Below are positions 19,745 through 34,984 of a stretch of 64,000 nt of DNA, one piece after another. Origin of the DNA: Solirubrobacter pauli. GTDB taxonomy: Bacteria; Actinomycetota; Thermoleophilia; Solirubrobacterales; Solirubrobacteraceae. The position numbers were made by a program, and so were the translations under genes. Under the pieces are notes generated by a model, which searched no databases, was not told where the DNA came from, and was given only the letters and a program-made list of their open reading frames with translations. The stretch spans positions 2,031,426 to 2,095,425 of the forward strand of contig NZ_RBIL01000001.1 of the NCBI RefSeq assembly GCF_003633755.1. Direction: 5' to 3'. Positions within the stretch are counted from its first letter, which is position 1, and every line of letters begins with the position of its first letter.

Positions 19745-21727
19745 ATGCTCGAACGCCTAGGGAAACTCACCGCGTCGCGGCCCAAGCGCACGCTCGTCCT
19801 GCTGCTCGCCTTCATCGTCCTGGCGGGCGTCGTGGGCGGCCCCGTCGCGGGCCGGATGCAGGGCGGCGACGGCTTCACGTCGCAAGCCTCCGAATCCGCC
19901 CAGGCCGAGCGCCAGCTCGAACGGGCGACCGGCGAGGCGACCGCGCCGGGCATCGTCCTGATCGCCCGGGACGGCCAGGCGCAGGCCGCCGCCGACACGC
20001 TCGGCCAGGTGGCCGGCGTCGCCCGCGCCGAAGTCGGACCGCGGTCGCAGGACGGCGCCACGCGACTCGTGACCGGCACGCTGCGAGCGGGCGTGGATGA
20101 CGAGGTCGTCGCCGAGGACGTCCTCGCCGCCTTCGAGGACCGACGCGACGTGACCGTGGGCGGCGGCGCCGTGATGGGCGCCCAGCTCGGGGAGACGATC
20201 TCCGAGGACCTCGGGCGGGCCGAGATGCTCGCGTTCCCGCTGCTGTTGCTGCTCTCGCTGCTGTTCTTCCGCGGTCGCGCCGCCGCCCTCCCGCTCGTCG
20301 TCGGCATCACCACCGTGCTCGGCACGTTCCTCGTGCTGACCGGCGTGAACGAGCTCTACGGCCTGAACGTCTTCGCCCTGAACCTCGTGATCGGTCTCGG
20401 GCTCGGGCTCGCGATCGACTACACGCTGTTCCTCGTCACCCGCTTCCGCGAGGAGCTGCGCGCCGGCGCCGAGCCGCGCGCCGCCGTGCGCACGACGATG
20501 CTGACCGCCGGACGCACCGTCGCCTTCAGCGCCGCCACCGTGGCCGCCGCACTCGGCGCGCTGACCCTGTTCCCGCTCGGCTTCGCGGAGTCGATGGGGA
20601 TCGCCGGCGCGAGCGTCGCGGTCGTCGCCGGCGTCGCCTCGCTGATCGTCTCGCCGGCTTTGCTCGCCCTCTGGGGCCGCACGCTGCTCCCGAAGCGCGA
20701 CGTCGCCGACGGCACCGACCGCTGGCACCGCCTCGCGCACGCCGTCATGCGCCGCCCCGGCGCGATCGCGCTGGTCACGGCCGCCGTGATGCTGGTCGCC
20801 GCCTTCCCCGCGGTCGGCGTCCAGTGGACCCCGGTCGACGGCACCGCCCTCCCCACCGACAAGAGCGCCCGCGTCGTCTTCGATGCCATCGAGCGCGACT
20901 TCGGCGGCTCCGGCTCCACGCCCGTCACCGTCGCCGCGACGTCCGCGTCGCCGGATGCGGTGCGCGCCTTCGCGGAGCAGATCGGCGCGGAGGCGCAGGC
21001 CCTCCCGGGCGACACGTGGCGCCTGACCGTGGACGTGCCCGGCGACCCGACCGGCGAGCGCGCCCGGGACACCGTCGCCGGCATCCGCGCCCTCGACCCG
21101 CCGTTCGCCACCGCCGTCACCGGTCCCGCGGCGAAGTTCATCGACCAGCAGGCGACGATCGGCTCCCGCCTGCCGCTCGCCATCGGCGTCCTCGGCCTGC
21201 TCACGTTCGCGCTGCTGTGGCTGATGACCGGCTCGGTCGTGCTGCCGCTGAAGGCGATCGTCATGAACGCGCTGACCGTCGGCGCCGCCCTCGCGCCGCT
21301 GGTGCTGCTCTACGACGGCGTCGAGCCGACCGACTTCCTCGTCGCCGCCGCGCTGATCTTCGCCCTCTCCACCGACTACGGCGTGTTCCTGCTGGGCCGC
21401 ATCAAGGAGGCGCGCGACCACGGCGAGAGCGAGCGCGAGGCGGTCGCCGTCGGCATCGCCCGCACCGGCAAGGTCGTCACCGCCGCGGCGATCCTGCTCG
21501 CGGTCGCGATCGGCGCGTTCTCGACGAGCTCGATCCCGTTCATCCAGCAGATCGGCATCGCCGTCGCCACCGGCGTCCTGCTCGACGCGTTCATCGTGCG
21601 GACGCTGCTCGTGCCGTCGCTGATGGCGCTCCTGGGCAAGTGGAACTGGTGCTCGCCGAAGCCGCTGCGCCGTCTGCACGCCCGCGTCGGCATCAGCGAG
21701 GGCGGCCCGGCCCCCGCGGCCGCCTGA
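19745..21727 (+). CDS. MMPL/RND-family membrane exporter (first of three)
   Basis: About 660 residues from the ATG at 19745 (MLERLGKLTASRPKRTLVLL, the usual amphipathic start of this family; an ATG at 19709 is possible). One N-terminal helix, a soluble loop, five helices, a linker, then the pattern repeats: the two-fold MMPL layout with about 12 helices. The proton-relay type motif LGLGLAIDYTLFLVTRFREE is present in the first half and ALSTDYGVFLLGRIKEAR in the second. MMPL proteins export lipids or hydrophobic compounds using the proton gradient; the cargo is not predictable. A histidine kinase gene starts 13 bases downstream, so the exporter is probably co-regulated with or by that two-component system. 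Confidence 0.9.
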   Translation: MLERLGKLTASRPKRTLVLLLAFIVLAGVVGGPVAGRMQGGDGFTSQASESAQAERQLERATGEATAPGIVLIARDGQAQAAADTLGQVAGVARAEVGPRSQDGATRLVTGTLRAGVDDEVVAEDVLAAFEDRRDVTVGGGAVMGAQLGETISEDLGRAEMLAFPLLLLLSLLFFRGRAAALPLVVGITTVLGTFLVLTGVNELYGLNVFALNLVIGLGLGLAIDYTLFLVTRFREELRAGAEPRAAVRTTMLTAGRTVAFSAATVAAALGALTLFPLGFAESMGIAGASVAVVAGVASLIVSPALLALWGRTLLPKRDVADGTDRWHRLAHAVMRRPGAIALVTAAVMLVAAFPAVGVQWTPVDGTALPTDKSARVVFDAIERDFGGSGSTPVTVAATSASPDAVRAFAEQIGAEAQALPGDTWRLTVDVPGDPTGERARDTVAGIRALDPPFATAVTGPAAKFIDQQATIGSRLPLAIGVLGLLTFALLWLMTGSVVLPLKAIVMNALTVGAALAPLVLLYDGVEPTDFLVAAALIFALSTDYGVFLLGRIKEARDHGESEREAVAVGIARTGKVVTAAAILLAVAIGAFSTSSIPFIQQIGIAVATGVLLDAFIVRTLLVPSLMALLGKWNWCSPKPLRRLHARVGISEGGPAPAAA

Positions 21728-23599: not shown

Positions 23600-24594
23600 C
23601 AGCCCAACGCGTCCTTGTAGGACTCGGCCACGGTGAGCGCTTTGCCGCCGACCACGGTCCCGTCGGTGGCGACGGCCTCGACGTGCTGGTGCAGCACCTC
23701 GCCGTAGTGGCCCTCGCGGTTCATCGCCTTCAGGACGGCGGAGCGCTCGACCGCGCGCAGCGCCTGCACGGCCGCGGTGCGCTCCCTGGCGGCGCCCTCG
23801 AGCCAGGTCTTGATCCACCCGCAGGACACCGCGGCCACGACGCGCGCACCGAGCTGGTAGCGGTCGCGCGGCGCGCCGTGCGTGTCGAGCGCGGCGCGGT
23901 CGAAACCGGGCGGGACCGGCAGGTCGACGAGCATCTCGTCGATCACCCGGTCGCTGCTGCCGGGCCGCACGACGCTCGCGGGCATCGCGCTCAGCCAGAC
24001 GTCGACGGACACGGCGCGCAGGCGGCCCAGCAGCTCCTCCACGCCTGGGCCGCGCAGCTCGAGCACGTACCCGTCCATCGTCCACAGCGCCGTCTGGTCG
24101 CGCGGCGAGTACTCGAACACGCGCGCCGTCGTGCCCAGCACCGCGTGGTCCGCGAGCGCTCTCGTGCTCTTGCCGCGGTCGCGCACCCACCCGGCGAGGG
24201 ACTGGTCGCGCCGCCACGACAGCTCCGCCCGGCGCACCCCGTTCTCGAACTGCATCTCGCCCGTGCCGACGTCGAACTGGTCCGCGCGCGTGACCGTCCA
24301 GCCGTCGATCAGCAGCCGGGGCACCGCCTCGGCGACCCGCACGGCCTGCGCCGCCCACGCGCGGTCGGTCCCGCCGCCGCTGCCTGACAGGAAGACGATG
24401 GTCGCCGCCAGCGCGGCGGCGACCAGCGCACCCGCGGCGGGCACCAGCCGCCGGCGCCGGCGCGGCGCCCGCCGGCGGACCGGCCGCGTGACGATCGCCT
24501 CGCGCAGCTCGGCCTCGACCGCGTCGAGCATCAGCGCGTCCAGCTCGTCGTCGGTGATCGGCGCCGCCCGGCGCACGGCTTCATCCAGGCTCAT
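23596..24594 (-). CDS. Single-pass membrane protein paired with ECF sigma factor (putative anti-sigma factor)
   Basis: 332 residues. Cytosolic residues 1-48 (MSLDEAVRRAAPITDDELDAL, then very basic RRRAPRRRRR), one membrane helix at about 50-70, then an extracytoplasmic domain of about 260 residues with two cysteines (SCGW and the terminal GC). The ATG overlaps the stop of the upstream sigma gene (ATGA), the usual layout for sigma and anti-sigma pairs. No HxxxCxxC zinc motif is seen in the cytosolic part, so it is not a classical ZAS anti-sigma; the role is inferred from position and topology. An alternative is a sigma-dependent envelope protein. Confidence 0.72.
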   Translation of the reverse strand: MSLDEAVRRAAPITDDELDALMLDAVEAELREAIVTRPVRRRAPRRRRRLVPAAGALVAAALAATIVFLSGSGGGTDRAWAAQAVRVAEAVPRLLIDGWTVTRADQFDVGTGEMQFENGVRRAELSWRRDQSLAGWVRDRGKSTRALADHAVLGTTARVFEYSPRDQTALWTMDGYVLELRGPGVEELLGRLRAVSVDVWLSAMPASVVRPGSSDRVIDEMLVDLPVPPGFDRAALDTHGAPRDRYQLGARVVAAVSCGWIKTWLEGAARERTAAVQALRAVERSAVLKAMNREGHYGEVLHQHVEAVATDGTVVGGKALTVAESYKDALGC

Positions 24595-25133
24595 GCGACG
24601 GTCTCCTGCGCGATCGTGCGGATGGTGGCTGGCTCGCCCTCCCAGCCGAGGGTGGTCAGCTCGGCGCGCAGCCGGCGTCGAGCCCGGTGCAGGCGACTGC
24701 GGACCGTGACTCCCAGCGTCCCCGTCGCGACGGCGATCTCGCTCGGCGACAGGCCCTCCCAGCCGGCGAGCAGCAGCAGCTCGCGGTCCTCGTCGGAGAG
24801 CCGCGCCAGCGCGCGCCGGATGACGCCGTCCTCGGGCTCGGCCGGCACCGCCACGGTGAGCTCGGCCGCGAGCCGGTCCGACAGCCCGCTGCGGCGCCGC
24901 TCGCCGCGGCGCTGGTTGGCGAGCACGCGCCGCGCGACGGCGAGCAGCCACGCGCGCGCCGCGTCGCCCTCAGGGACCTCGCCCAGCCGGCGCCAGACGA
25001 CCAGGAACGTCTCGGCGACGACGTCGGCCGCGTCGGCGGGCTCGTCCACGCGCCGCAGCGCGTAGCCCAGCACGAGGCGCCGGTGGGTGTCGAACAGCGC
25101 CCGGAAGCGGCGCTCGGCGTGTGATCGCTCCAT
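24591..25133 (-). CDS. ECF-type RNA polymerase sigma factor
   Basis: 180 residues from the ATG at 25133. Region 2 (about 8-75) includes FRALFDTHRRLVLGYALRR, the D-A-A-DVVAETFLVVWRR motif and ARAWLLAVARRVLANQRR. Region 4 (about 110-165) includes LARLSDEDRELLLLAGWEGLSPSEIAVATG and VRSRLHRARRRLRAEL, a helix-turn-helix for the -35 element. It has the short two-domain form of ECF sigma factors. It is coupled by ATGA to the membrane partner gene, which probably holds it inactive until an envelope signal arrives. Confidence 0.92.
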   Translation of the reverse strand: MERSHAERRFRALFDTHRRLVLGYALRRVDEPADAADVVAETFLVVWRRLGEVPEGDAARAWLLAVARRVLANQRRGERRRSGLSDRLAAELTVAVPAEPEDGVIRRALARLSDEDRELLLLAGWEGLSPSEIAVATGTLGVTVRSRLHRARRRLRAELTTLGWEGEPATIRTIAQETVA

Positions 25134-25239: not shown

Positions 25240-28200
25240 CTACGGGGTGATCGTCGACAGCGTGAACGTGAGCGTCTTGCTGTAGCGACCGGTCCGGAGC
25301 GCGTCCTTCTCGTTGATCGACTGCTTGAAGTCGATCGCGACGTCCGCGCCCGAGACCGGGTCGGAGAACGTCTTGAGCGTGAGCGGCGTGCCACTCAGCG
25401 CGGCGAACGCGCCGCCGGCCTTGACCTGCAGCGGCTGCGCCAGGGCGTACGCGCCGTTGACGAGCTTGCCGGTGTTGGTCGTGCTGGGGTCGACCACGGA
25501 CAGCGCCGCGTCGCCGGCGGTGCTGGTCACCGAGGCGAGCGTGCTGGCCGTGTAGTCGCGCGTGGCGCCCGGCTCGAAGTTGCCGAGCGAGGACTGCGCG
25601 CCGAGCGTGATCGCGAGCGTCGCCGGCACGTTGCCGATCAGCTCATGGTCGGTGTTCGACGTCGTGGCCGTGATCTTGACCGTCTTGGAGCCGATCGCCG
25701 AGACGTTGCCGGCGGCGTCCGTCGCGCGGTACTCGATCACGTGCTCGCCCTGCGCGGACACCGTCACCGGGGAGGTGTAAGCCGTCCACGCGCCACCGTT
25801 GACGCGGTACTCGAGCGTGACCGTGCCGGGCTTGTCGTCCTGGCCGGCCAGCGTCAGCGTGACCGGGCGCTTGTACGAGCCGTCCGCGTCGGGCGCGGCC
25901 GGGTCCAGCGTGCCCGTGACGGTCGGCGCGACGTTGTCGATCAGGCCTTCCTTGATGCGGACGTTGCGGTACCAGACGTTGTCGCCGTCGCCGTGGTTCT
26001 GGAGGCCGACGAAGCCCGCCAGGTCGCGTGCCGCGTTGGTCACCGTGTAGTCGTTGACCACGGTGCCGTTCAGGATGATCTTGATGTTGTTGCCCTGGAC
26101 GAGGAGCTCGTAGGCGTTCCACTGGCCGAGCGGCTTCAGGGACGCGAGGACCTTGTCGCGGTCAGCGCCCTGGATGCCGTAGATCGAGCCGGTCAGGTGC
26201 ACCAGGTCGTCCGTCTCGTCGATCTGGATCTCGTAGCCGTTGTCGACCGCGGTCCACGGATCGCCCTTGGGGTCCGGGAAGCCGACGAAGACGCCACCGT
26301 TGGAGTCGTTCGTCATCTTCCAGTCGAGCTTGAGGCTGTAGTTCGTGAACGACTTGGGCGTGTACCAGTTCAGGCCCAGGCCGCCGACGCTCTTGATCGA
26401 GCAGTCCGTCTGGCGGCCGAACGAGCCGGGGCCTGCCATGCGCCACTTGGCCAGCGAGTCGAGCGTGCCGTCGAACAGGCCGACGTAGCCGGGCTCGAGC
26501 GTGGCCGGGGCGCAGATGTCCTTCGCCTCGCCGATCTTCAGCGTGTCGAAGTTGACGTTGCCGTCGGTGCCCGAGTCGAACGAGAGCTTGATCTGGTTCG
26601 TGCCCTTCTTCAGCGCCAGGCTCTTGGTGCTGAACGCCCACGCCTTCCAGTCGGCCGTCGAGGTCGTCGGGAAGACCCAGTTGTCCTGCTTGACGCCGTT
26701 GACGTACAGCGCCAGCGACTTGTCCTTGGTGGACGGGTTCGGGCCGTTGGCGTAGCGGATGTTCACCGGGTAGGTGCCGTCGGCGTCGACGTCGACCTGC
26801 CAGGTGAGGTTCGCGCCGTTGTTGAAGAAGCCACCGGCGAAGCCGGAGCCGGAGTAGCCGGAGTGCTCGGTCTCGACGGACGCGCCGGAGCGCAGGACGG
26901 CCTCTTCGGCCTCGTAGTTGCCGGTCTGCGTCGGGGTGGCCGTGTAGCCGGGCAGCGAGTTCAGCGTGTACCACGCCTCGGAGTTCCACAGCGCCTCGCC
27001 GGCGGCCGAGGAGAACGGGGCGGGGGAGCGCACGTACACGACGCGGCCGGGCTTGAGGCCGTCGACCTTGATCGTGACCGACTTCTTGTCGGCCGCGACC
27101 GTGGCGTCCGTGACGAGCAGACCCTCCTCGTCGACCTTCGGGCCGCCGTACTGGGCCGTCGGGACGTAGCGCCACTGCTTGAACTGGTAGGCCGACTTGG
27201 CCTTGGCCGCGGTCTCGTCCGAGAGCGGCTGCGTGTAGGAGATCTTGAAGCCGCCCTCGACGACCTCCATCTTCTCCATGTCGAAGACGTTCTTGCCGCT
27301 GGGGGTGAGCTTCTGGAGGCCGTAGCGCTGCTTGCCCTCCTGGCCCCAGTTGCCGCCCTCGCCGGTGCCGCCGACGTAGATCGCGCCGTCCGGGCCGATC
27401 ATCGTGCGGTTGACGCCGACCTCGAGGCCGGCCGTGTGGCGGAAGACCGCGCCCTGGAACTCGCCGCCGACCTTCTCGAGGAAGCCGCGCTGGAGGCCGC
27501 CGTAGGTGACGTCACCCCAGATCATCTGCCCCTTGAACGGACCGTCGGTGAGCATCACCGGGTTCGACGGGGAGTTCGCGACCTCGTTCTGCGGCATCCA
27601 CAGGACGGGCTGGGTGACCGGCTTGTCGTCGTACGGGCCGGGTGGGTTCGTGTAGTGGTTGAAGAAACGACCCGGCTTGATCTGGACCATCTTGTTCGAC
27701 GGCAGCCAGGCACCCTGGTTGTCGTTGACGAAGATGCCGCCCTCGGGGCCGAAGCCGATGCCGTTCGGGGTGCGCAGGCCACCGGCGATCGTGGACACTT
27801 CCCACGTCTTGCGGTCGATCTTGATCGCGGTGCCCGGATCCTTGCCCGGCTGCGGGTCGGTCGTCGCGCCACCGTTGTTGATGGCGTTCGAGCGCGCGAT
27901 GTAGAAGTAGTCGGCGTCGTGGATGAGGCCGAAGGCGAACTCGTGGAAGTTGCCGCCGTTGGGCCACGAGGCGAGCCGCTTGTGGTCCATCATCGTGTCG
28001 GCGTCGTCGCCGTCCGGGAGCAGCTCGGTGAGGCCCTCGCGCTCGGACACGTACCAACGGCCGTCGATGACCTGGATGCCCATGGCGTTCTTGAGCTTGT
28101 CGGCGACCTTGGTGTAGGTCACCTGGTCCTTGCTCGTGTTGCCCGTGACGTGGTCGAGGACGTAGACCTCGCTGGACTCCGGGTTCGGGACCCAGCCGCC

Positions 28201-28950
28201 GGAGGAGACGTCGCCCGTGGTCGTGATGACCATGCGGCCGTCCGGCAGGAAGTCCATGCCGGAGACCTTCGGCTGGAAGGCCGAGGGGCGGATGTCGGTC
28301 AGGTCGTAGTCCGGGTTCACGGACTCCAGGGGCAGACCGTCACCGGGGGTGTCGGTGTCGCCCTCGCAGAACTTGCTGCCCGGCGCGGTGACGCGCACGA
28401 CCTGGGCCTCGGTCGAGAGGACCGTGCTCGGGACGACGGCGTAGGCGCTCGAGCCCGGCGTCTTCCACTCGAGCTTGAGCACCTGCTCGTTGGCACCGTC
28501 GACGTGCTTGATCAGCAGGGTGTGGTTGCCCGCCGTGAGCGTGGCGGTGCCTTCCTTGGACTCGACGGCGTGCATGCCGTCGTTGTTGACGACCTCCTTG
28601 CCGTCCAGCCACAGGACGGAGCCGTCGTCGCTGGTGAGGCGGAAGGCGTAATCGCCGGCGGTGGCGATGTTGAGGTTGGCGAGCACTTCCGTCTGGAAGT
28701 TGCCCTCGAGACCGAACTCGCTGGTCTGCGTCCAGTTGATGGTGGGCATCAACTTGTCGACGTTCGGCGTCTGGCGAGCCTTCAGCGTGCACGTGCCGTT
28801 CGGCGCGACCGCGAACTGGTACGTGCGCATGGTGACCCCGGGCTCCTGGGGCGGCAGGTTCTGCGCGGCAGCGCTGCCGGCGAGCGCGCCGAGCGCGCCC
28901 GTCACCGCGGCGGCGGCGATGCCGGCGCGGGTCCTCCAACTTGCGGACAA
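25240..28950 (-). CDS. Large secreted multidomain sugar-processing protein (PA14, beta-propeller, CBM, DUF1080, shared C-terminal module)
   Basis: 1236 residues. The start is set to the TTG at 28950 because GGAGGAGG lies 4-5 bases upstream; a signal peptide follows (ending GSAAAQ). Estimated domains: PA14-like 55-150 (FRLTSDDGSVLWLDG); glucose/sorbosone-dehydrogenase-like beta-propeller 200-560 (MDFLPDGRMVITTTGD, PNGIGFGPEGGIFVNDNQG); CBM6/35-like 670-820 (YEAEEAVLRSG, then SFDSGTDGNVNFDTLKIG); DUF1080 3-keto-disaccharide hydrolase-like 821-1007 (LKLDWKMTNDSNGGVF and GFVGLQNHGDGD); an Ig-like domain with YRATDAAGNVS 1008-1104; and the shared module to the end (STITP). It should act on oxidised glycosides or polysaccharides outside the cell. 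No heme motif (CxxCH) is seen, so any oxidase activity would need a separate electron acceptor. Confidence 0.88.
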   Translation of the reverse strand: MSASWRTRAGIAAAAVTGALGALAGSAAAQNLPPQEPGVTMRTYQFAVAPNGTCTLKARQTPNVDKLMPTINWTQTSEFGLEGNFQTEVLANLNIATAGDYAFRLTSDDGSVLWLDGKEVVNNDGMHAVESKEGTATLTAGNHTLLIKHVDGANEQVLKLEWKTPGSSAYAVVPSTVLSTEAQVVRVTAPGSKFCEGDTDTPGDGLPLESVNPDYDLTDIRPSAFQPKVSGMDFLPDGRMVITTTGDVSSGGWVPNPESSEVYVLDHVTGNTSKDQVTYTKVADKLKNAMGIQVIDGRWYVSEREGLTELLPDGDDADTMMDHKRLASWPNGGNFHEFAFGLIHDADYFYIARSNAINNGGATTDPQPGKDPGTAIKIDRKTWEVSTIAGGLRTPNGIGFGPEGGIFVNDNQGAWLPSNKMVQIKPGRFFNHYTNPPGPYDDKPVTQPVLWMPQNEVANSPSNPVMLTDGPFKGQMIWGDVTYGGLQRGFLEKVGGEFQGAVFRHTAGLEVGVNRTMIGPDGAIYVGGTGEGGNWGQEGKQRYGLQKLTPSGKNVFDMEKMEVVEGGFKISYTQPLSDETAAKAKSAYQFKQWRYVPTAQYGGPKVDEEGLLVTDATVAADKKSVTIKVDGLKPGRVVYVRSPAPFSSAAGEALWNSEAWYTLNSLPGYTATPTQTGNYEAEEAVLRSGASVETEHSGYSGSGFAGGFFNNGANLTWQVDVDADGTYPVNIRYANGPNPSTKDKSLALYVNGVKQDNWVFPTTSTADWKAWAFSTKSLALKKGTNQIKLSFDSGTDGNVNFDTLKIGEAKDICAPATLEPGYVGLFDGTLDSLAKWRMAGPGSFGRQTDCSIKSVGGLGLNWYTPKSFTNYSLKLDWKMTNDSNGGVFVGFPDPKGDPWTAVDNGYEIQIDETDDLVHLTGSIYGIQGADRDKVLASLKPLGQWNAYELLVQGNNIKIILNGTVVNDYTVTNAARDLAGFVGLQNHGDGDNVWYRNVRIKEGLIDNVAPTVTGTLDPAAPDADGSYKRPVTLTLAGQDDKPGTVTLEYRVNGGAWTAYTSPVTVSAQGEHVIEYRATDAAGNVSAIGSKTVKITATTSNTDHELIGNVPATLAITLGAQSSLGNFEPGATRDYTASTLASVTSTAGDAALSVVDPSTTNTGKLVNGAYALAQPLQVKAGGAFAALSGTPLTLKTFSDPVSGADVAIDFKQSINEKDALRTGRYSKTLTFTLSTITP

Positions 28951-29039
28951 ACGTCCTCCTCCAACGAGACCCAAATGCAACGGCGACCGACGTTACAAGG
29001 CTTTGGTTCTCATCTGTAGGGCTTTTGTCACTTGATCGG

Positions 29040-31094
29040 CTAAACCATCTGTCCGGTTTTTCGTGTAAGCACTCCAGGCCACCAGTTCAAGCGCCCAAGT
29101 AGGGACATCGTCGCCGGAAGCAGCAGGCCTCTCACCACCGTCACATCGAGGAAGACGGCGATCGCCATGCCCACGCCGACCTGCTTGACCTGGACCAGCT
29201 CACCGAGCGCGAAGCCCAGGAACACGATGCCGATCGAGATCGCGGCGGCGGTCACGACGGGGCCTGAGGCGGCGATGCCGGTGAGCACCGCGCGGTCGTT
29301 GTCGCGCGTGCGGTCCCACTCCTCCTTGATGCGGGCGAGCAGGAACACCTCGTAGTCCATCGAGAGCCCGAAGATGAACATGAACAGCAGCAGCGGCGTG
29401 GTGATGTCCAGCGGGTCCGGGAAGATCAGGACGAGCGCGCCGAGCGTGGCCCCGAGCGTCAGCAGGTTGAGCAGCAGCGCCTTGATCGGGATCAGCACCG
29501 AGCGCGTCAGCGCGAACAGCAGCAGCGCGGTGGGGACGAAGATCACCAGCAGCGCGAGCGGCAACCGTGCGCGCGTGGACTCCTTCGCGTCGATCAGCTC
29601 CGCCGCCGGCCCGCCGACGAGCACCGGCACGGGCGCGTCGTAGGCGCGGACGTCGCGGACGATCTGCTGGGCGCGCGGCCCGGCGGACGTGCCCTGCGGC
29701 GCGATCTCGACCCGCGTCACGCCCGGCGTCGGGTTCCCGGCGATGTTCACGTCGTTGCGCTTGCCCTGGCTGAACAGGAAGCGCATCAGGCCCTGCACCT
29801 TCGGGTCGCTGCTGTCGGCTTCGACCACGACGGTGACCGGGACGCTGGCGAGCGGGAAGTCGCGCTCGAGCCGCTCCGCGACGACGCGCTCCTCGGTGCT
29901 CTCGGGCAGGGCGCTCGCGTCCGAGTTGTTCACGTCGAGCCCGGTGACCGGGAAGGTGAGCGCGAGCAGCGCGACCGCCGACACCAGCGCGACCGGCACC
30001 CGGTGGCGCTGCGAGAAGGCCGCGAGCGTCTCGAGCAGGCCGCGGCGCTCGCCGCGCGGACGGCGCCAGACCCACGTCCGCGTTCCCGGCGCGGGGATCC
30101 GGCGGTGGGCGAGCGCGATCAGCGCGGGGACGAGCGTGAGTCCGGCGATCGTGGCCAGGCAGACCGCGAGCAGACCGCCGAGCGCCATCGCGGCGAGCAC
30201 GGGCGTGCCGAACACGGCGAGGCCGGCGAGCGCGATCGCGACGGCGAGGCCGGAGACGAGCACGGCGCGGCCGGCCGCCGCCACGGTGCGCTCCAGCACG
30301 TCCTCGAGCGGGTCGTCGGGCGCGTCCGCGCGCTCTTGCCGGAAGCGGGCGATGACGAGCAGGCTGTAGTCGACCGCGAGCCCGAGCCCGAGCAAGGTGA
30401 CGACGTTGACCGCGAACTCGCTCACGTCGAGCGAGCCCGCGAGCGCGTTGAGCGCCAGCAGCGCGGTCGCGATCGTCGCCAGCGCGGCGGCAAGCGGCAG
30501 CAGGCCGGCGACCATGCCGCCGAGGAAGAGGATCAGCACGACGCACAGCACGACGAGCGCGATCGACTCGCCGAACACGGCGTCGTCGACGGCACGGTCG
30601 GCGAACGTCCGCTCCGCGAGCAGCTCGCCACCGACGTAGACCTCGGGCGCGTCGATCGTGCGGATCTTTGCCGACACGTCGTCGGCCAGCGCGAGCGCGC
30701 GCTCCTCGCTGAGCCTCGGGTCCAGCTCGACCACGGCGACGGAGCTGTTGCCGTCGACGGCGACGAGCCCGCCGGAGGTGTACGCGTCGCTGACGTCGAC
30801 GACGCCCGGCGTCTGACGCAGGCTGTTGAAGACGTTCGTGGCCGACTGGACCAGCGCGGGCGTGTAGAAGTCCGCTCCGCCGATCACGGCGACGACGGTC
30901 TCGCCCTCCGGGTCGAGCGCGTCCACGCGTGCCTCGGCGCGTTTGGACTCGGCGCTGGAGCGGAGGTCCTCGACCGTCTTCGTGCGGTCGAAGACGCCGC
31001 CACCGACGATTCCGCCGACGAGCGCCAGCACGATCCAGACGCCGACCACCGGCAGCCGCCACCGGGTGGCGACTCTCCCCCACCTTCCGAGCAT
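29040..31094 (-). CDS. MMPL/RND-family membrane exporter (second of three)
   Basis: 684 residues with the twofold MMPL topology: helix 1 at about 13-32, a periplasmic-type loop, five helices (VNVVTLLGLGLAVDYSLLVIARFRQE in the proton-relay region), then a repeat with FIFGLSMDYEVFLLARIKEEWD. Both D-Y motifs are intact. Cargo unknown. Its start is 24 bases after the stop of the sigma/SH3 fusion gene, so it is likely the last gene of that operon and may be the system's output. A gap of 89 bases separates its stop from the start of the neighbouring large gene, whose promoter must be there. Confidence 0.9.
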   Translation of the reverse strand: MLGRWGRVATRWRLPVVGVWIVLALVGGIVGGGVFDRTKTVEDLRSSAESKRAEARVDALDPEGETVVAVIGGADFYTPALVQSATNVFNSLRQTPGVVDVSDAYTSGGLVAVDGNSSVAVVELDPRLSEERALALADDVSAKIRTIDAPEVYVGGELLAERTFADRAVDDAVFGESIALVVLCVVLILFLGGMVAGLLPLAAALATIATALLALNALAGSLDVSEFAVNVVTLLGLGLAVDYSLLVIARFRQERADAPDDPLEDVLERTVAAAGRAVLVSGLAVAIALAGLAVFGTPVLAAMALGGLLAVCLATIAGLTLVPALIALAHRRIPAPGTRTWVWRRPRGERRGLLETLAAFSQRHRVPVALVSAVALLALTFPVTGLDVNNSDASALPESTEERVVAERLERDFPLASVPVTVVVEADSSDPKVQGLMRFLFSQGKRNDVNIAGNPTPGVTRVEIAPQGTSAGPRAQQIVRDVRAYDAPVPVLVGGPAAELIDAKESTRARLPLALLVIFVPTALLLFALTRSVLIPIKALLLNLLTLGATLGALVLIFPDPLDITTPLLLFMFIFGLSMDYEVFLLARIKEEWDRTRDNDRAVLTGIAASGPVVTAAAISIGIVFLGFALGELVQVKQVGVGMAIAVFLDVTVVRGLLLPATMSLLGRLNWWPGVLTRKTGQMV

Positions 31095-31118
31095 CGGGCG
31101 AGATCGTAGAAGGCTGTC

Positions 31119-32540
31119 TCAGCGATTTGACACGAGTGCCTCCTCGCACAGCGCGTCGGCGGTCACCCATCCGCGCTCGCCGGTGTCCGTGCGGACCCGT
31201 GCCCAGCCGTCCTCGAGCGCCTTGACCTGCACGGGCTGCTGCGCGCGCAGCGAACCGGCCGTGGCGGCGTCCGGGCGCGGGCGGACCCGCAGGTACCGGT
31301 GCGTGGCGCAGGCGCGCGTCCACGGCTGCGCGGTGGCCGCCTGGGCGCCGTCGGCGAGCACCGAGCCGCGCGCGTCGGCGCGTCGGCACAGGGTTCCGAC
31401 GATCATGGTCCCGGCGCGCGCGACGGTCTTGCGCTCGAACACGAGGCGCGCCACACGACCGGTGCCCGCGATCGTCCCGGGTGCGTACCCGACGCCGATC
31501 CGCACGCCCTGTGGGGGCAGCATCCCGGCGATCCGCGTGCCCTCCGGGCAGGTCAAGGCGACCGTCGCCGGCGGACGCTGGCCGGGGGTGAAGGTGAGCG
31601 CGCGCGAGACCATCGCGGTGCCGCTCGGCAGCGGCGCGCCCGCGGGCAGCGCGCCGCCGGGCACCGCGGGTGAGCGGACGGTGACGGGCGAGGGGTCGCC
31701 GGGGAGCAGGACGAGCGGCGCGGCGAGCGACGCCGTCGCCGCGAACGCCGCGAAGCCGCCGGCCGCCTTGCCGGACGGGCCGAGCTTGATCGCGAGGCCA
31801 CCGAGCAGGAAGCCCAGCCCGAGCGGCGGGACCAGCGCGAGCGTCCCGCGCCGCACGGTCCGGAGCTGCTCGCGCAACGCCCGGCAGGCGCGGCACGTGA
31901 CGAGGTGGCGGTAGGTGGCCGCGGACGCGCGGCGGCGGGCGTCGTGCGCCGCCAGCAGGTCGCCCTGGACGGTGAGGCAGCTCGTGTCGCGGGCCTCGCG
32001 ACCCTTGATCACGTTCAGCCGCGCGCGGTGCACGAGCTGCTTGCTGGCCTGCGGCGTGACGCCGAGCTCGAGCGCGAGCTCGTCGTGGCCGAGCCCGTCG
32101 AGCTCGCGCCGCAGCAGCGCGTGACGCTGCGCGGCGGGGAGCGCGGCGATGTCCGCGAGCAGGCCGTGCACGGCGTCGCGCTGCTCGAGCACCATGTGCG
32201 GCGAGGGCGACAGCGGGCCCGCGGGCTCGGGGTCCTCGACGGCGATCGGCGCGAAGCGCGCGCGGCTCAGCTCGTCGAGGCTGCAGTTGCGCACGAGCCG
32301 GTGCAGCCAGGAGGCGAGGTGCAGCGGCTCGTGATCGCGCTGGATCGCGCGGTGCGCACGGATCAGCGCCTCCTGCACCACGTCCTCGGCGTGCTGGCGG
32401 CGCCCGCCGAGCATGCGCGCCGCGTAGCGCTCGAGGCGCTTGGCGTAGCGCTGGTGGATCACGTCGAACGCGGCGTCGTCACCGGCGCGCAGGCGGCGCA
32501 CCAGCTCGTCGTCCGCGATCCGCCGCACCTCAACAGCCAT
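31119..32540 (-). CDS. ECF sigma factor fused to zinc-finger anti-sigma-like segment, membrane anchor and SH3-like tail
   Basis: 473 residues. Sigma region 2 spans about 15-90 (FDVIHQRYAKRLERYAARML, EDVVQEALIRAHRAI, LASWLHRLVRNCSLDEL). Sigma region 4 spans about 120-182 (LPAAQRHALLRRELDGLGHDELALELG, then SKQLVHRARLNVIKG). After it comes a zinc-finger-like C188...H212-x3-C216-x2-C219, the HxxxCxxC pattern of ZAS anti-sigma factors. A hydrophobic segment at 232-251 and a second, Ala-rich one at 260-280 follow, then about 190 residues with four cysteines ending in a bacterial SH3-like domain (YLRVRPRPD ... GWARVRTDTGERGWVTADALC). Sigma factor, its inhibitor and a sensor would thus be one polypeptide tied to the membrane. 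Topology (one or two helices) is uncertain; the even cysteine number favours an outside tail. Overlaps the upstream SH3 gene by 11 bases. Confidence 0.85.
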   Translation of the reverse strand: MAVEVRRIADDELVRRLRAGDDAAFDVIHQRYAKRLERYAARMLGGRRQHAEDVVQEALIRAHRAIQRDHEPLHLASWLHRLVRNCSLDELSRARFAPIAVEDPEPAGPLSPSPHMVLEQRDAVHGLLADIAALPAAQRHALLRRELDGLGHDELALELGVTPQASKQLVHRARLNVIKGREARDTSCLTVQGDLLAAHDARRRASAATYRHLVTCRACRALREQLRTVRRGTLALVPPLGLGFLLGGLAIKLGPSGKAAGGFAAFAATASLAAPLVLLPGDPSPVTVRSPAVPGGALPAGAPLPSGTAMVSRALTFTPGQRPPATVALTCPEGTRIAGMLPPQGVRIGVGYAPGTIAGTGRVARLVFERKTVARAGTMIVGTLCRRADARGSVLADGAQAATAQPWTRACATHRYLRVRPRPDAATAGSLRAQQPVQVKALEDGWARVRTDTGERGWVTADALCEEALVSNR

Positions 32541-32796
32541 TCACGCTCCGGGACGTGATCCAGCCGGAGATCGGCGCGGCGGAGCGCACGCGGATCCACC
32601 GTCGCGTCCCGTCGCGTTTGAGCACGACGACTCGGTCGCCGCGGTAGAGCACGCCGACCGGCAGCCCGCGCGGGCTGTCGAGGACCGTCACCTGCGGCGT
32701 GCAGATGCGCTCGACCGACGCGGCAGCGGCGGCGGCCGGGAAGGCCGCCGCCGCCAGTGCCGTGCCGGTCACGATGCACGTGAGCCGGAGGCGCAC
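32530..32796 (-). CDS. Small secreted SH3-like protein
   Basis: 88 residues from a GTG at 32796. A signal peptide (VRLRLTCIVTGTALAAAAFPAAAAAAS) precedes about 60 residues of SH3b type: QVTVLDSPRGLPVGVLYRGDRVVVLKRDG, then WIRVRSAAPISGWITSRSVNGC. Two cysteines (C32, C88) could form a disulphide. Bacterial SH3 domains usually bind cell-wall peptides. It starts 4 bases after the stop of the preceding secreted protein gene and overlaps the sigma fusion gene by 11 bases, so all three are one operon. Its domain matches that at the end of the sigma fusion, suggesting a shared ligand or competition for it. Confidence 0.8.
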   Translation of the reverse strand: MRLRLTCIVTGTALAAAAFPAAAAAASVERICTPQVTVLDSPRGLPVGVLYRGDRVVVLKRDGTRRWIRVRSAAPISGWITSRSVNGC

Positions 32797-32800
32797 CCGG

Positions 32801-33571
32801 TTACCGGCGCGCCTGCTGCTTGGCCTTGGCCTGCTTCTTGCCCTTGGCCTTGCTCTTGCTCTTGCTCGTGACCTTCTTCTTGGTGGCGGCGGCCGGCTTG
32901 CGCGTGCCCTTGGCGCCGTCGAGGATGCGGCGGGCCTGCTCCTCGAAGGTGACGCGCTCGGCGTTCGCGCCGGCGTTGCTGAGCGCGAGCAGGTGCTCGT
33001 TGCCGGCCAGCGGCAGCGTCTCGACCGACTCGACGGTCTCGGTCTGCGTGTAGCTCTGCCCGCTCTGCGTGCCGGTCGTGACGCGCTGGTACGGCGCCAG
33101 CGTCGCGGCGTCGACCACGTAGGTCGTGGAGACGCGGCCCTCGGCCGGCGCGCCGGGCGTGGTCGCGAGCGTGACCGCCGCACGTCCGAGGAAGGTCGTG
33201 TCGCCCGTCCTGGCGATCCAACCCTTGCCGATCATCGTGCGGATGTCGTCGCCCTGCGACGGCAGCGAGCGGACGAACGTGCCGCGCCCGTGGGCGCTCG
33301 GTCCGTCCATCGTGGCGATCTCGTTGCGCGTCGCGTCGAAGGCCGTGAACACGCCGCCCGCCTCAGCCGCCTCGTAGCGCAGCCGGCCGCCCGCCGTGAT
33401 CACCTGGCGCGCGCTGTCCGCCGCGACCCAGCGCTCGAACCGCTCCGAGCGGTTCTCGTAGCTGCTCTGGAAGCTGATCGTCGAGACGGAGTGCTCGATC
33501 GTGGAGGCCGCGGCGGTCGCCGGCGCCGCGAGCGCGGCGGCGGTCGCGAGGCCCAGGATGGTGCGCTTCAT
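32801..33571 (-). CDS. Secreted protein with lysine-rich C-terminal tail, function unknown
   Basis: 256 residues. A signal peptide (MKRTILGLATAAALAAPATAAAS) is followed by a mature region that begins TIEHSVSTISFQSSYENRSERFERWVAAD, with RVSTTYVVDAATLAPYQRVTTG near residue 150, a pattern like LolA/RseB-type lipid or stress-binding proteins, though I cannot confirm the fold. Residues from about 216 form a basic tail of Lys/Ala/Ser, which could bind teichoic acid or other anionic wall polymers. It is the first gene of the operon with the SH3 protein and the sigma fusion, so a role as an envelope sensor or regulator is inferred. Confidence 0.75.
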   Translation of the reverse strand: MKRTILGLATAAALAAPATAAASTIEHSVSTISFQSSYENRSERFERWVAADSARQVITAGGRLRYEAAEAGGVFTAFDATRNEIATMDGPSAHGRGTFVRSLPSQGDDIRTMIGKGWIARTGDTTFLGRAAVTLATTPGAPAEGRVSTTYVVDAATLAPYQRVTTGTQSGQSYTQTETVESVETLPLAGNEHLLALSNAGANAERVTFEEQARRILDGAKGTRKPAAATKKKVTSKSKSKAKGKKQAKAKQQARR

Positions 33572-33658: not shown

Positions 33659-34984
33659 CTACGCGGCCACGGCGGCCCAGCTCTCCAGCGCCGCGAAGTG
33701 CTCGCTCGAGAACGCCGTGCCGGCGTCGCGGCGCATGATCGCCAGCGCCTCGTCCGGGCCGAGCGCGTCGCGGTACGGGCGGTCGGCGGTGAGCGCCTCG
33801 AAGACGTCGGCGACGGCGAGGATGCGCGGCATCCAGCCGAGCTGGTCGGCCGTGAGGCCGAGGTGGTAGCCGCGGCCGTCGAGGCGCTCGTGGTGCGCGC
33901 CGGCGTCCAGCGCGAAGTGCCGGAACGGCGGGACGCGCTCGAGGATGCGCGTCGTCAGCTCGGCGTGCCGGCGGATCGCCGCCCACTCGTCGGCGTCGAG
34001 CCGGCCGGGCTTGTCGAGCACGGTGTTGGCGACGCCGAGCTTGCCGAGGTCGTGCAGCAGCGCAGCGCGACGCAGGTCGCGCGTGGTCTCGGGCGGGAGA
34101 CCGAGGGTCTCGGCGACGCCGACCGAGATGCGCGCCACGCCCGCCGAGTGACGGCCGGTGAACGGCGACTTCGCGTCGACCACGGTGGCGAACGCCTCGG
34201 CCACGCGGTCGAGCCCGTCCTCGTCGGTCATGAGCACGCGGTCGGTGGGCTCGAACGCCTTGACGACCTCCACGGCGTCCCCGCCCAGCGAGCTCCAGAA
34301 CGCGCGGTCGCCGCGGGTGGCGAGCAGCGCGGCCACGAGCTCGGGGTCGAACCAGCGCCCGGCGCGCCGGGCGGCCATGTCGAGCGCCGCCTCCAGCCCG
34401 CCGTGCGCGAGGTGGACCTCGACCGCCTGCGCGAGCCCCATGACCCGCGCCGCGACCGGGATGTCCGCGCCCTTGCGCCCGAACGGCGCGCCGCCACCGT
34501 CCCAGTGCTCGTCGAGGGCGAGGATCGCCCTGGCCGTGCTCTCCGGCAGGTCGATCATGCGCGCGATGTCGGCTCCGCGCTCGCAGCGGATGGCGACGAG
34601 CCGATCCGTCGTGTCACCGCCGAACGCGAACCCCCCGAACCGCCGCAGCCGCGTGAGCAGCGACGCGTTCGGCAGCGTGGCGCGGAAGGCCGTGGCCGCG
34701 TTCACGCGCGTGGAGCGGTAGTCCGTGCGCCGCCGGTCGCGCTTGAACGCGCGGTCGTCGGAGCCGAACAGCTCGTACACGGTCCCGGCGTTGGCCGAGC
34801 AGCCCGCGTCCTTGAGCAACAGCGCGTAGTAGAGGCTGGAAAGCTCCTCGTCGCACACGCCCGCCTCCTGGGCGATCCGCATGCCGATCGCGCACGAGCG
34901 CGCGGCGTGGCCCGCGGGCTGGCCCTCGGTCACGTCCAGCGCGTACGACAGCGCCGAGAGGATGTCCGAAAGGCGTACTTCCAC
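33659..34984 (-). CDS. Tandem HD-GYP phosphodiesterase-like protein (first domain degenerate)
   Basis: 441 residues, no membrane segment. The C-terminal HD-GYP domain (about 265-440) has LLHDLGKLGV (H311, D312), HHERLDGRGY (364-373) with His instead of the usual Pro after GY. The N-terminal half (about 20-230) looks like a second HD-GYP domain in which the HD pair is K59-D60 and the downstream motif is DEHWDGGGAPF, so it is probably non-catalytic. HD-GYP proteins hydrolyse cyclic-di-GMP with two or three metal ions. Together with the PAS-GGDEF-EAL protein at 15 kb it suggests cyclic-di-GMP signalling in this organism. Single gene; its start is about 50 bases from the end of gltX. Confidence 0.86.
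   Translation of the reverse strand: MEVRLSDILSALSYALDVTEGQPAGHAARSCAIGMRIAQEAGVCDEELSSLYYALLLKDAGCSANAGTVYELFGSDDRAFKRDRRRTDYRSTRVNAATAFRATLPNASLLTRLRRFGGFAFGGDTTDRLVAIRCERGADIARMIDLPESTARAILALDEHWDGGGAPFGRKGADIPVAARVMGLAQAVEVHLAHGGLEAALDMAARRAGRWFDPELVAALLATRGDRAFWSSLGGDAVEVVKAFEPTDRVLMTDEDGLDRVAEAFATVVDAKSPFTGRHSAGVARISVGVAETLGLPPETTRDLRRAALLHDLGKLGVANTVLDKPGRLDADEWAAIRRHAELTTRILERVPPFRHFALDAGAHHERLDGRGYHLGLTADQLGWMPRILAVADVFEALTADRPYRDALGPDEALAIMRRDAGTAFSSEHFAALESWAAVAA

What the first reader, a model, noticed from the sequence alone, without database searches (positions are those of the whole stretch)
29040..33571. Membrane-tethered sigma factor fused to its own anti-sigma-like finger and an SH3 sensor, in an operon with two secreted proteins and an exporter
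One 473-residue protein carries ECF regions 2 and 4, an HxxxCxxC zinc-finger-like segment, hydrophobic helices, a four-cysteine region and a terminal SH3-like domain. Upstream in the same operon are a secreted SH3 protein of 88 residues and a secreted protein with a lysine-rich tail; downstream, 24 bases away, is an MMPL exporter. This reads as a self-contained envelope-sensing unit in which the SH3 domain watches the wall and proteolysis would release the sigma domain.
Basis: partly seen in the sequence, partly recalled or inferred. Interest (0 to 1): 0.76.

Follow-up and report, generated by a model that had tools for sequence, protein, structure and literature searches.

The report
Sigma factor with co-encoded sensor copies
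A soil bacterium (Solirubrobacter) carries a gene switch, a sigma factor, welded to its own brake, a membrane anchor and an outside sensor, and the genes just in front of it make free, secreted copies of that same sensor; the welded switch is a known kind, but the paired free copies, kept side by side across a bacterial family, appear to be new.

Summary
The 473-residue fusion (31119-32540, minus) has sigma regions 2 and 4, an invariant C-x23-HxxxCxxC anti-sigma-like motif, two weak hydrophobic segments, an undescribed two-cysteine domain ("C2") and a terminal SH3. It is no strain artefact: it recurs in other Solirubrobacter genomes and, at 33-49% identity, across Solirubrobacteraceae. The kind is known (actinobacterial ECF48/52/53, e.g. 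SCO4117). Corrections: (1) the MMPL exporter is an incidental neighbour; the conserved cassette is secreted LolA/RseB-fold protein - secreted SH3 protein - fusion. (2) Several homologues lack SH3; the invariant outside part is C2. (3) The gene in front of the fusion encodes a secreted stand-alone homologue of one of the fusion's own outside domains (SH3 or C2, sometimes both, in the same order) in 22 of 25 loci, against 0 of 13 sister fusions without those domains; the copies are ancient. (4) Cysteine pairs are kept or lost together, which places the tail outside. (5) GTCCGGGAC-N13-CGGAGTC occurs once per genome, in front of this cassette, suggesting autoregulation. Best reading: a self-contained envelope sensor with soluble copies of its own sensor domain. 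Release by proteolysis remains inferred.

The parts
31119..32540 (-). ECF sigma - zinc-finger anti-sigma-like - membrane - C2 - SH3 fusion, 473 aa
   Evidence: family alignment
32256..32453 (-). sigma region 2 (residues 30-95)
   Evidence: Pfam PF04542
32016..32150 (-). sigma region 4 (residues 131-175)
   Evidence: Pfam PF08281
31884..31979 (-). anti-sigma-like zinc motif C188-x23-H212-xxx-C216-xx-C219
   Evidence: sequence; four ligand positions invariant in 17 homologues
31776..31850 (-). first weak hydrophobic segment (residues 231-255), with Pro-Pro; possibly not a full crossing
31695..31766 (-). second hydrophobic segment (residues 259-282), likely the single membrane crossing
   Evidence: topology inferred from cysteine pairs
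31377..31766 (-). match of the C2 profile: the extracytoplasmic two-cysteine domain (C331, C385); its first part overlaps the second hydrophobic segment; no Pfam family
   Evidence: profile match E 7.5e-41 (model built from the family, window included); no Pfam match
31140..31376 (-). terminal SH3 domain bracketed by C411 and C465
   Evidence: Pfam SH3_3
32530..32796 (-). secreted stand-alone SH3 protein, 88 aa, homologue of the fusion's SH3; 11-nt overlap with the fusion
32801..33571 (-). secreted protein (P3) of LolA/RseB/LppX-like fold with Lys/Arg-rich tail, 256 aa
33614..33642 (-). conserved promoter-like motif GTCCGGGAC-N13-CGGAGTC in front of the cassette
29040..31094 (-). MMPL exporter: adjacent here but not a conserved part of the unit
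33659..34984 (-). HD-GYP protein; flanks the cassette in all four Solirubrobacter species examined, on either side; not taken as part of the unit

Best explanation
A self-contained, probably autoregulated envelope-stress switch. The ECF sigma domain is held inactive and at the membrane by its own C-terminal zinc-finger anti-sigma-like domain. A membrane segment links this to an extracytoplasmic disulfide-bonded C2 domain and, here, an SH3 domain. Co-encoded with it are a secreted SH3 protein homologous to the fusion's SH3 and a secreted protein of lipid-carrier (LolA/RseB) fold. Proposed working: the tail senses an envelope or wall ligand; the soluble copy binds the same kind of ligand, or the tail itself, and sets the threshold, and the LolA/RseB-like protein plays an RseB/MucB-like modulating part; when the balance shifts, the sigma domain is freed (intramembrane proteolysis, or loosening of the finger) and transcribes its own cassette from the GTCCGGGAC-N13-CGGAGTC promoter, raising both switch and soluble copies. 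Shown here: anatomy, conservation, homology of the free and tethered domains, their ancient co-retention, the paired cysteines, the fold of the P3 model, the single-copy motif. Inferred: membrane topology, inhibition by the finger, the ligand, the role of the free copies, release by proteolysis, and that the motif is this sigma's promoter.
For: Conserved fusion. Conserved cassette P3-SH3-fusion in four Solirubrobacter species, and again as a diverged paralogous cassette in S. deserti. Free homologue of a tail domain in 22/25 C2-bearing fusion loci against 0/13 sister sigma-finger-membrane fusions without C2/SH3 tails, Fisher p 1e-7. Profile comparison: free SH3 against tail SH3 E 5.5e-20; free C2 against tail C2 E 1.3e-15; crossed controls E 0.03 or more, probability under 2%. 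In 81 family genomes, 17 of 18 strong stand-alone SH3 hits lie beside a fusion. Free C2 proteins form one clade apart from tail C2 (bootstrap 98); for SH3 10 of 13, bootstrap 78. SH3 tail cysteines both present (11) or both absent (7), never one; C2 cysteines likewise: the pattern of disulfides, hence of a compartment outside the cytosol. The free SH3 copies carry signal-peptide-like leaders and the same bracketing pair. P3 model: LolA best by Foldseek, RseB/MucB Z 9.0-9.9. Exact motif once in each of the 5 assemblies with the cassette, 0 in the 2 without. Site-2-protease-family (M50) genes present. Precedents: PMC8999054, PMC5826349.
Against: Two hydrophobic segments can be drawn in every member; if both cross, the tail would be cytosolic. 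Both are weak, and the structure model leaves them unresolved (pLDDT under 50 at 234-272, pTM 0.34). No ligand evidence for SH3 or C2. P3 shares only the fold with RseB; no Pfam RseB match, and VioE and ependymin-related proteins score as high or higher. Six of 17 strong stand-alone C2 hits are not beside a fusion. The motif's first half is a dyad (GTCC-G-GGAC) and could be an operator of another regulator. M50 proteases are near-universal, so their presence is weak support.
Confidence: 0.6

Rival explanations
1. The secreted SH3/C2 and LolA-fold proteins are simply the regulon's output (wall- or lipid-binding proteins that deal with the stress); they share domains with the sensor because both bind the same ligand, and have no part in sensing.
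For: Cassette order with a promoter-like motif in front; in C. thermocellum the anti-sigma RsgI proteins carry carbohydrate-binding modules and the SigI factors drive genes whose products carry such modules (PMC4711584).
Against: The free copy sits directly in front of the fusion in nearly all loci, in most overlapping it or ending within about 40 nt of its start, and has kept this place since before the family's genera parted; pure output genes would be expected also elsewhere in the genome, but the strict motif is found only once.
Confidence: 0.3
2. Both hydrophobic segments cross, so C2 and SH3 are cytosolic and the protein senses an internal signal.
For: Two hydrophobic segments can be drawn in every member examined; PMC8999054 allows one to two helices in such sigma factors.
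Against: Keep-or-lose cysteine pairs in SH3 and C2; free homologues carry signal-peptide-like leaders; the loop between the segments has no acidic and usually one to three basic residues, so a hairpin would break the positive-inside rule; sister fusions end in Pro/Ala/Thr-rich tails that look like wall-spanning linkers.
Confidence: 0.1
3. Activation does not need proteolysis: zinc loss or oxidation of the C188/H212/C216/C219 finger, or ligand-driven rearrangement, frees sigma while it stays membrane-bound.
For: Ligand set C...HxxxCxxC resembles that of redox-sensing zinc anti-sigma factors (established knowledge of RsrA-type domains); the low-confidence model shows no obvious cleavable linker.
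Against: About half of membrane-bound class I anti-sigma factors also carry the zinc motif, so it need not sense (PMC7406223); intramembrane proteolysis is shown for the fused IutY (PMC8999054).
Confidence: 0.25
4. The unit is a sensor plus exporter: the MMPL protein is its functional output.
For: 24-nt spacing in the window; same order in S. phytolaccae.
Against: In S. taibaiensis and S. deserti the MMPL orthologue is separated from the cassette and, in S. deserti, keeps its other neighbour instead; apart from the diverged paralogous cassette of S. deserti, no MMPL match near the fusions of other loci examined.
Confidence: 0.06

Closest known systems
ECF48/ECF52/ECF53 sigma factors of Actinobacteria (SCO4117 of Streptomyces coelicolor)
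   Same: ECF sigma regions followed in the same chain by a zinc-finger anti-sigma-like part, one to two membrane helices and an extracytoplasmic sensor; proteolytic release proposed (PMC8999054, PMC5826349).
   Different: Tail is C2 plus SH3 instead of a Pro-rich stretch with a carbohydrate-binding domain; a cassette of secreted homologues of the tail and a LolA/RseB-fold protein, not described for SCO4117 in the papers read.
IutY-type fused sigma/anti-sigma of Pseudomonas (ECF243)
   Same: Sigma and anti-sigma in one membrane protein, activated by regulated intramembrane proteolysis (PMC8999054).
   Different: IutY belongs to an iron cell-surface signalling system responding to aerobactin; nothing of that kind was seen in this cassette.
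RseA/RseB and MucA/MucB of Proteobacteria
   Same: A secreted LolA/RseB-fold protein encoded beside a membrane anti-sigma domain; MucB binds MucA and senses lipids (PMC7400510).
   Different: Sequence identity 10-18% only; no Pfam RseB match; here sigma and anti-sigma are one chain, and the second secreted partner is a copy of the sensor domain.
RsgI/SigI of Clostridium thermocellum
   Same: Anti-sigma sensor domains (carbohydrate-binding modules) are of the same kinds as modules in proteins of the regulon (PMC4711584).
   Different: Separate sigma and anti-sigma genes; no dedicated stand-alone sensor copy in the sensor's own operon described there.

Membership tests
ECF sigma factor | Sigma regions 2 and 4, above curated cut-offs | tested here: met
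   Pfam PF04542 and PF08281 above cut-off; TIGR02937 61.8 bits against cut-off 42.9
Zinc-binding class I anti-sigma domain | HxxxCxxC motif with an upstream ligand | tested here: met
   C188, H212, C216, C219 invariant in 17 sequences
Zinc-binding class I anti-sigma domain | Match to a Pfam anti-sigma zinc-finger model | tested here: inconclusive
   No such match at E up to 1 or in nine members at E up to 0.1; the domain is short and divergent
ECF48/52/53-type membrane sigma factor | C-terminal extension with zinc finger and one to two membrane helices | tested here: met
ECF52 | Proline-rich extension with carbohydrate-binding domain | tested here: not met
   C2 and SH3 instead; no carbohydrate-binding match
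ECF48/52/53 phylogenetic groups | Score to the published group profiles | not testable with these tools
   group profiles of the ECF classification not on hand
RseB/MucB | LolA-like fold of the N-terminal domain | tested here: met
   RseB/MucB Z 9.0-9.9 over about 145-155 residues, shared with LolA, VioE and ependymin-related proteins
RseB/MucB | Pfam RseB family match | tested here: not met
   no match for the window protein at E up to 1 or for four homologues at E up to 5
Bacterial SH3_3 | Pfam cut-off 27 bits | tested here: met
   tail 32.2 bits; the window's free copy 25.4, just below; its homologue L058 27.2
MMPL transporter | Pfam MMPL cut-off | tested here: met
   220.9 bits; not part of the conserved unit

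The most novel reading that the evidence does not exclude
A signalling receptor that is, as a rule, co-encoded with secreted duplicates of its own sensor domains, arisen by ancient duplications and kept beside it since: built-in soluble decoys or co-receptors that set the activation threshold of a membrane-tethered sigma factor, with an RseB-fold modulator, all under one autoregulated promoter.
Probability: 0.35. Interest if true: 0.75.

Novelty: new variant of a known kind. Interest (0 to 1): 0.55.

Why it matters
Membrane sigma factors fused to their own anti-sigma part are catalogued but little studied, and the signal is known for very few. Here the operon points to the mechanism: free and tethered versions of the same domain side by side, in matching order, over a whole family. 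It makes a testable prediction, that the secreted copy tunes the sensor, and supplies a candidate promoter, an undescribed domain (C2) and a minimal three-gene set that could be moved into a laboratory actinomycete.

Tried and rejected
MMPL as a functional partner (rejected by synteny). SH3 as the essential sensor (rejected: several homologues lack it). Strain-specific frameshift or assembly error (rejected). A 17-sequence tail alignment was too diverse for the contig scan; a 9-sequence one worked. AlphaFold of the fusion gave low confidence in the membrane region and low pTM, so topology was not taken from it. Classical GGAA...CGT ECF promoter pattern: no match in front of the cassettes tested. 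Sequence search of solved structures with the tail found nothing, and with P3 nothing meaningful. A first SH3 tree that included leader columns gave a perfect split of free and tethered copies; redone on core columns it weakened to 10 of 13. A first run of that script failed on thread settings. No paper in the library mentions Solirubrobacter together with ECF sigma factor.

Full report
Where it is. The window lies in a 7.1-Mb genome of the genus Solirubrobacter: its same-genus relatives G003, G004 and G001/G006 correspond, by matching contig lengths, to S. phytolaccae, S. taibaiensis and strain CPCC 204708 (S. deserti). The genome holds at least 150 sigma region-4 matches, so one more ECF sigma factor is not remarkable in itself.

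The observation. The zinc motif is C188-x23-H212-xxx-C216-xx-C219 shortly after sigma region 4; the four ligands are invariant among 17 homologues, as are C331 and C385 of the tail.

Conservation. The fusion occurs in Solirubrobacter at 70-91% identity and in other genera of the family at 33-49%. Sigma-finger-membrane fusions with unrelated, Pro/Ala/Thr-rich tails are spread through the order, so the front part is a common chassis and the tail varies. The C2-SH3 tail was found only in Solirubrobacteraceae-level relatives (family f1): 299 genomes of the class and 396 of the phylum were sampled.

The unit. Synteny in four Solirubrobacter species gives a three-gene cassette: P3 (the Lys-rich protein), secreted SH3, fusion. 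The cassette lies on one side of an HD-GYP gene in two species and on the other side in two. The MMPL gene adjoins it only in the window and S. phytolaccae. In other genera a gene for a free copy of an outside domain stands in front of the fusion: SH3 in some, C2 in others, and C2 then SH3 in L035, L054 and L041, the same order as within the fusion. Of 25 loci, 22 have such a copy and 3 do not (L047, L094, L096); 13 sister fusions without C2/SH3 tails have none. Loci of one genus are not independent, so the p-value of 1e-7 overstates the case, but the loci span at least seven genera. In a sample of the family chosen without regard to the cassette, 17 of 18 strong stand-alone SH3 hits (E below 1e-10, outside fusions) and 11 of 17 stand-alone C2 hits lie beside a fusion (my count; two of the genomes, G001 and G006, are the same strain).

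Homology of free and tethered domains. Profile-profile comparison gives E 5.5e-20 (SH3) and 1.3e-15 (C2); crossed controls find nothing. Own-pair identity (mean 29% for SH3) is no higher than other-pair identity (31%), so there is no sign of recent copying. Trees on core columns put all free C2 proteins in one clade (bootstrap 98) and 10 of 13 free SH3 proteins in one tail-free clade (bootstrap 78). The duplications are old and both copies were kept.

Topology. Two weak hydrophobic windows can be drawn in all 35 proteins checked; parity alone would allow a cytosolic tail. Against this: in 18 complete SH3 tails the bracketing cysteines are both present (11) or both absent (7), never single; the C2 pair is invariant in tails and is kept or lost as a pair in the free copies. 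The free SH3 copies have signal-peptide-like leaders and the same cysteine bracket. The inter-segment loop has no acidic residue in any of them. I take the tail to be outside, with the first, Pro-containing segment probably not a full crossing; this is inference.

P3. The model (pLDDT 76, pTM 0.65) matches the LolA/LppX/RseB superfamily: Foldseek best LolA at 6e-9, RseB and MucB at 1e-5 to 5e-5 with 14-18% identity; VIA-align Z 9.0-9.9 for RseB/MucB, within a broader group that includes VioE and ependymin-related proteins at 10-12. This is fold only; an RseB-like role is a hypothesis drawn from the neighbourhood. A basic C-terminal tail recurs in many P3 homologues.

Promoter motif. In front of P3 the four species share GTCCGGGAC-N13-CGGAGTC while the surrounding sequence of S. 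taibaiensis and S. deserti differs from that of the window. With one mismatch allowed, the pattern occurs once, and exactly, in each of five assemblies (four species) with the cassette and not in the two without. It could be a GGGAC-N16/17-GTC promoter of ECF type or, because GTCCGGGAC is a dyad, an operator. A similar ACAAACTCCGGGAC stands in front of P3 in genome G035, another genus.

Mechanism. Shown: anatomy, conservation, co-retained homologues, paired cysteines. From the literature: proteolytic activation proposed for ECF48/52/53 and shown for IutY (PMC8999054); truncation data for SCO4117 (PMC5826349); lipid sensing by MucB (PMC7400510); shared module kinds in RsgI sensors and SigI regulon proteins (PMC4711584). 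Inferred: the ligand, the tuning role of the free copies, proteolysis. M50 proteases exist in the genome, as almost everywhere.

Verdict. A new variant of a known kind. The fusion itself is already a described type. What deserves attention is the rule that its sensor domains are also encoded as separate secreted proteins next to it, and the uncharacterised C2 domain.

Noticed in passing
L032 near 8151; L053 near 5828; L033; L052: In strain CPCC 204708 (two assemblies) a frameshift cuts the fusion inside the SH3 domain; the rest of SH3 is readable in another frame. Real loss or shared sequencing error not decided.
   Followed up: partly
window 33659-34984: An HD-GYP protein flanks the cassette in all four Solirubrobacter species examined, on one side in two and on the other side in two.
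   Followed up: partly
L097-L109: Sister sigma-finger-membrane fusions across the order end in long Pro/Ala/Thr/Ser/Gly-rich tails without C2 or SH3; several per genome.
   Followed up: partly
G209:C1:153453-153821, G034:C1:2607663-2608082, G686:C295:1256-1642, G252:C14:90799-91215, G285:C2:110841-111293, G680:C103:2310-2717: Stand-alone C2-domain proteins not beside a C2-tailed fusion; some of these genomes (e.g. G209) show no C2-tailed fusion at all.
   Followed up: no
L041 5016-9064: Locus with P3, free C2, free SH3 and fusion all on one strand, with another secreted protein gene between free C2 and free SH3.
   Followed up: partly
window 24591-25130: A second, ordinary ECF sigma factor gene nearby on the same strand.
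   Followed up: no
window 25240-28980: Large secreted 1246-aa protein, in appearance a multidomain sugar-dehydrogenase-like or carbohydrate-binding protein (no family search run).
   Followed up: no
window 19745-21649: A second MMPL-like gene on the plus strand (about 34% identity to the first).
   Followed up: no
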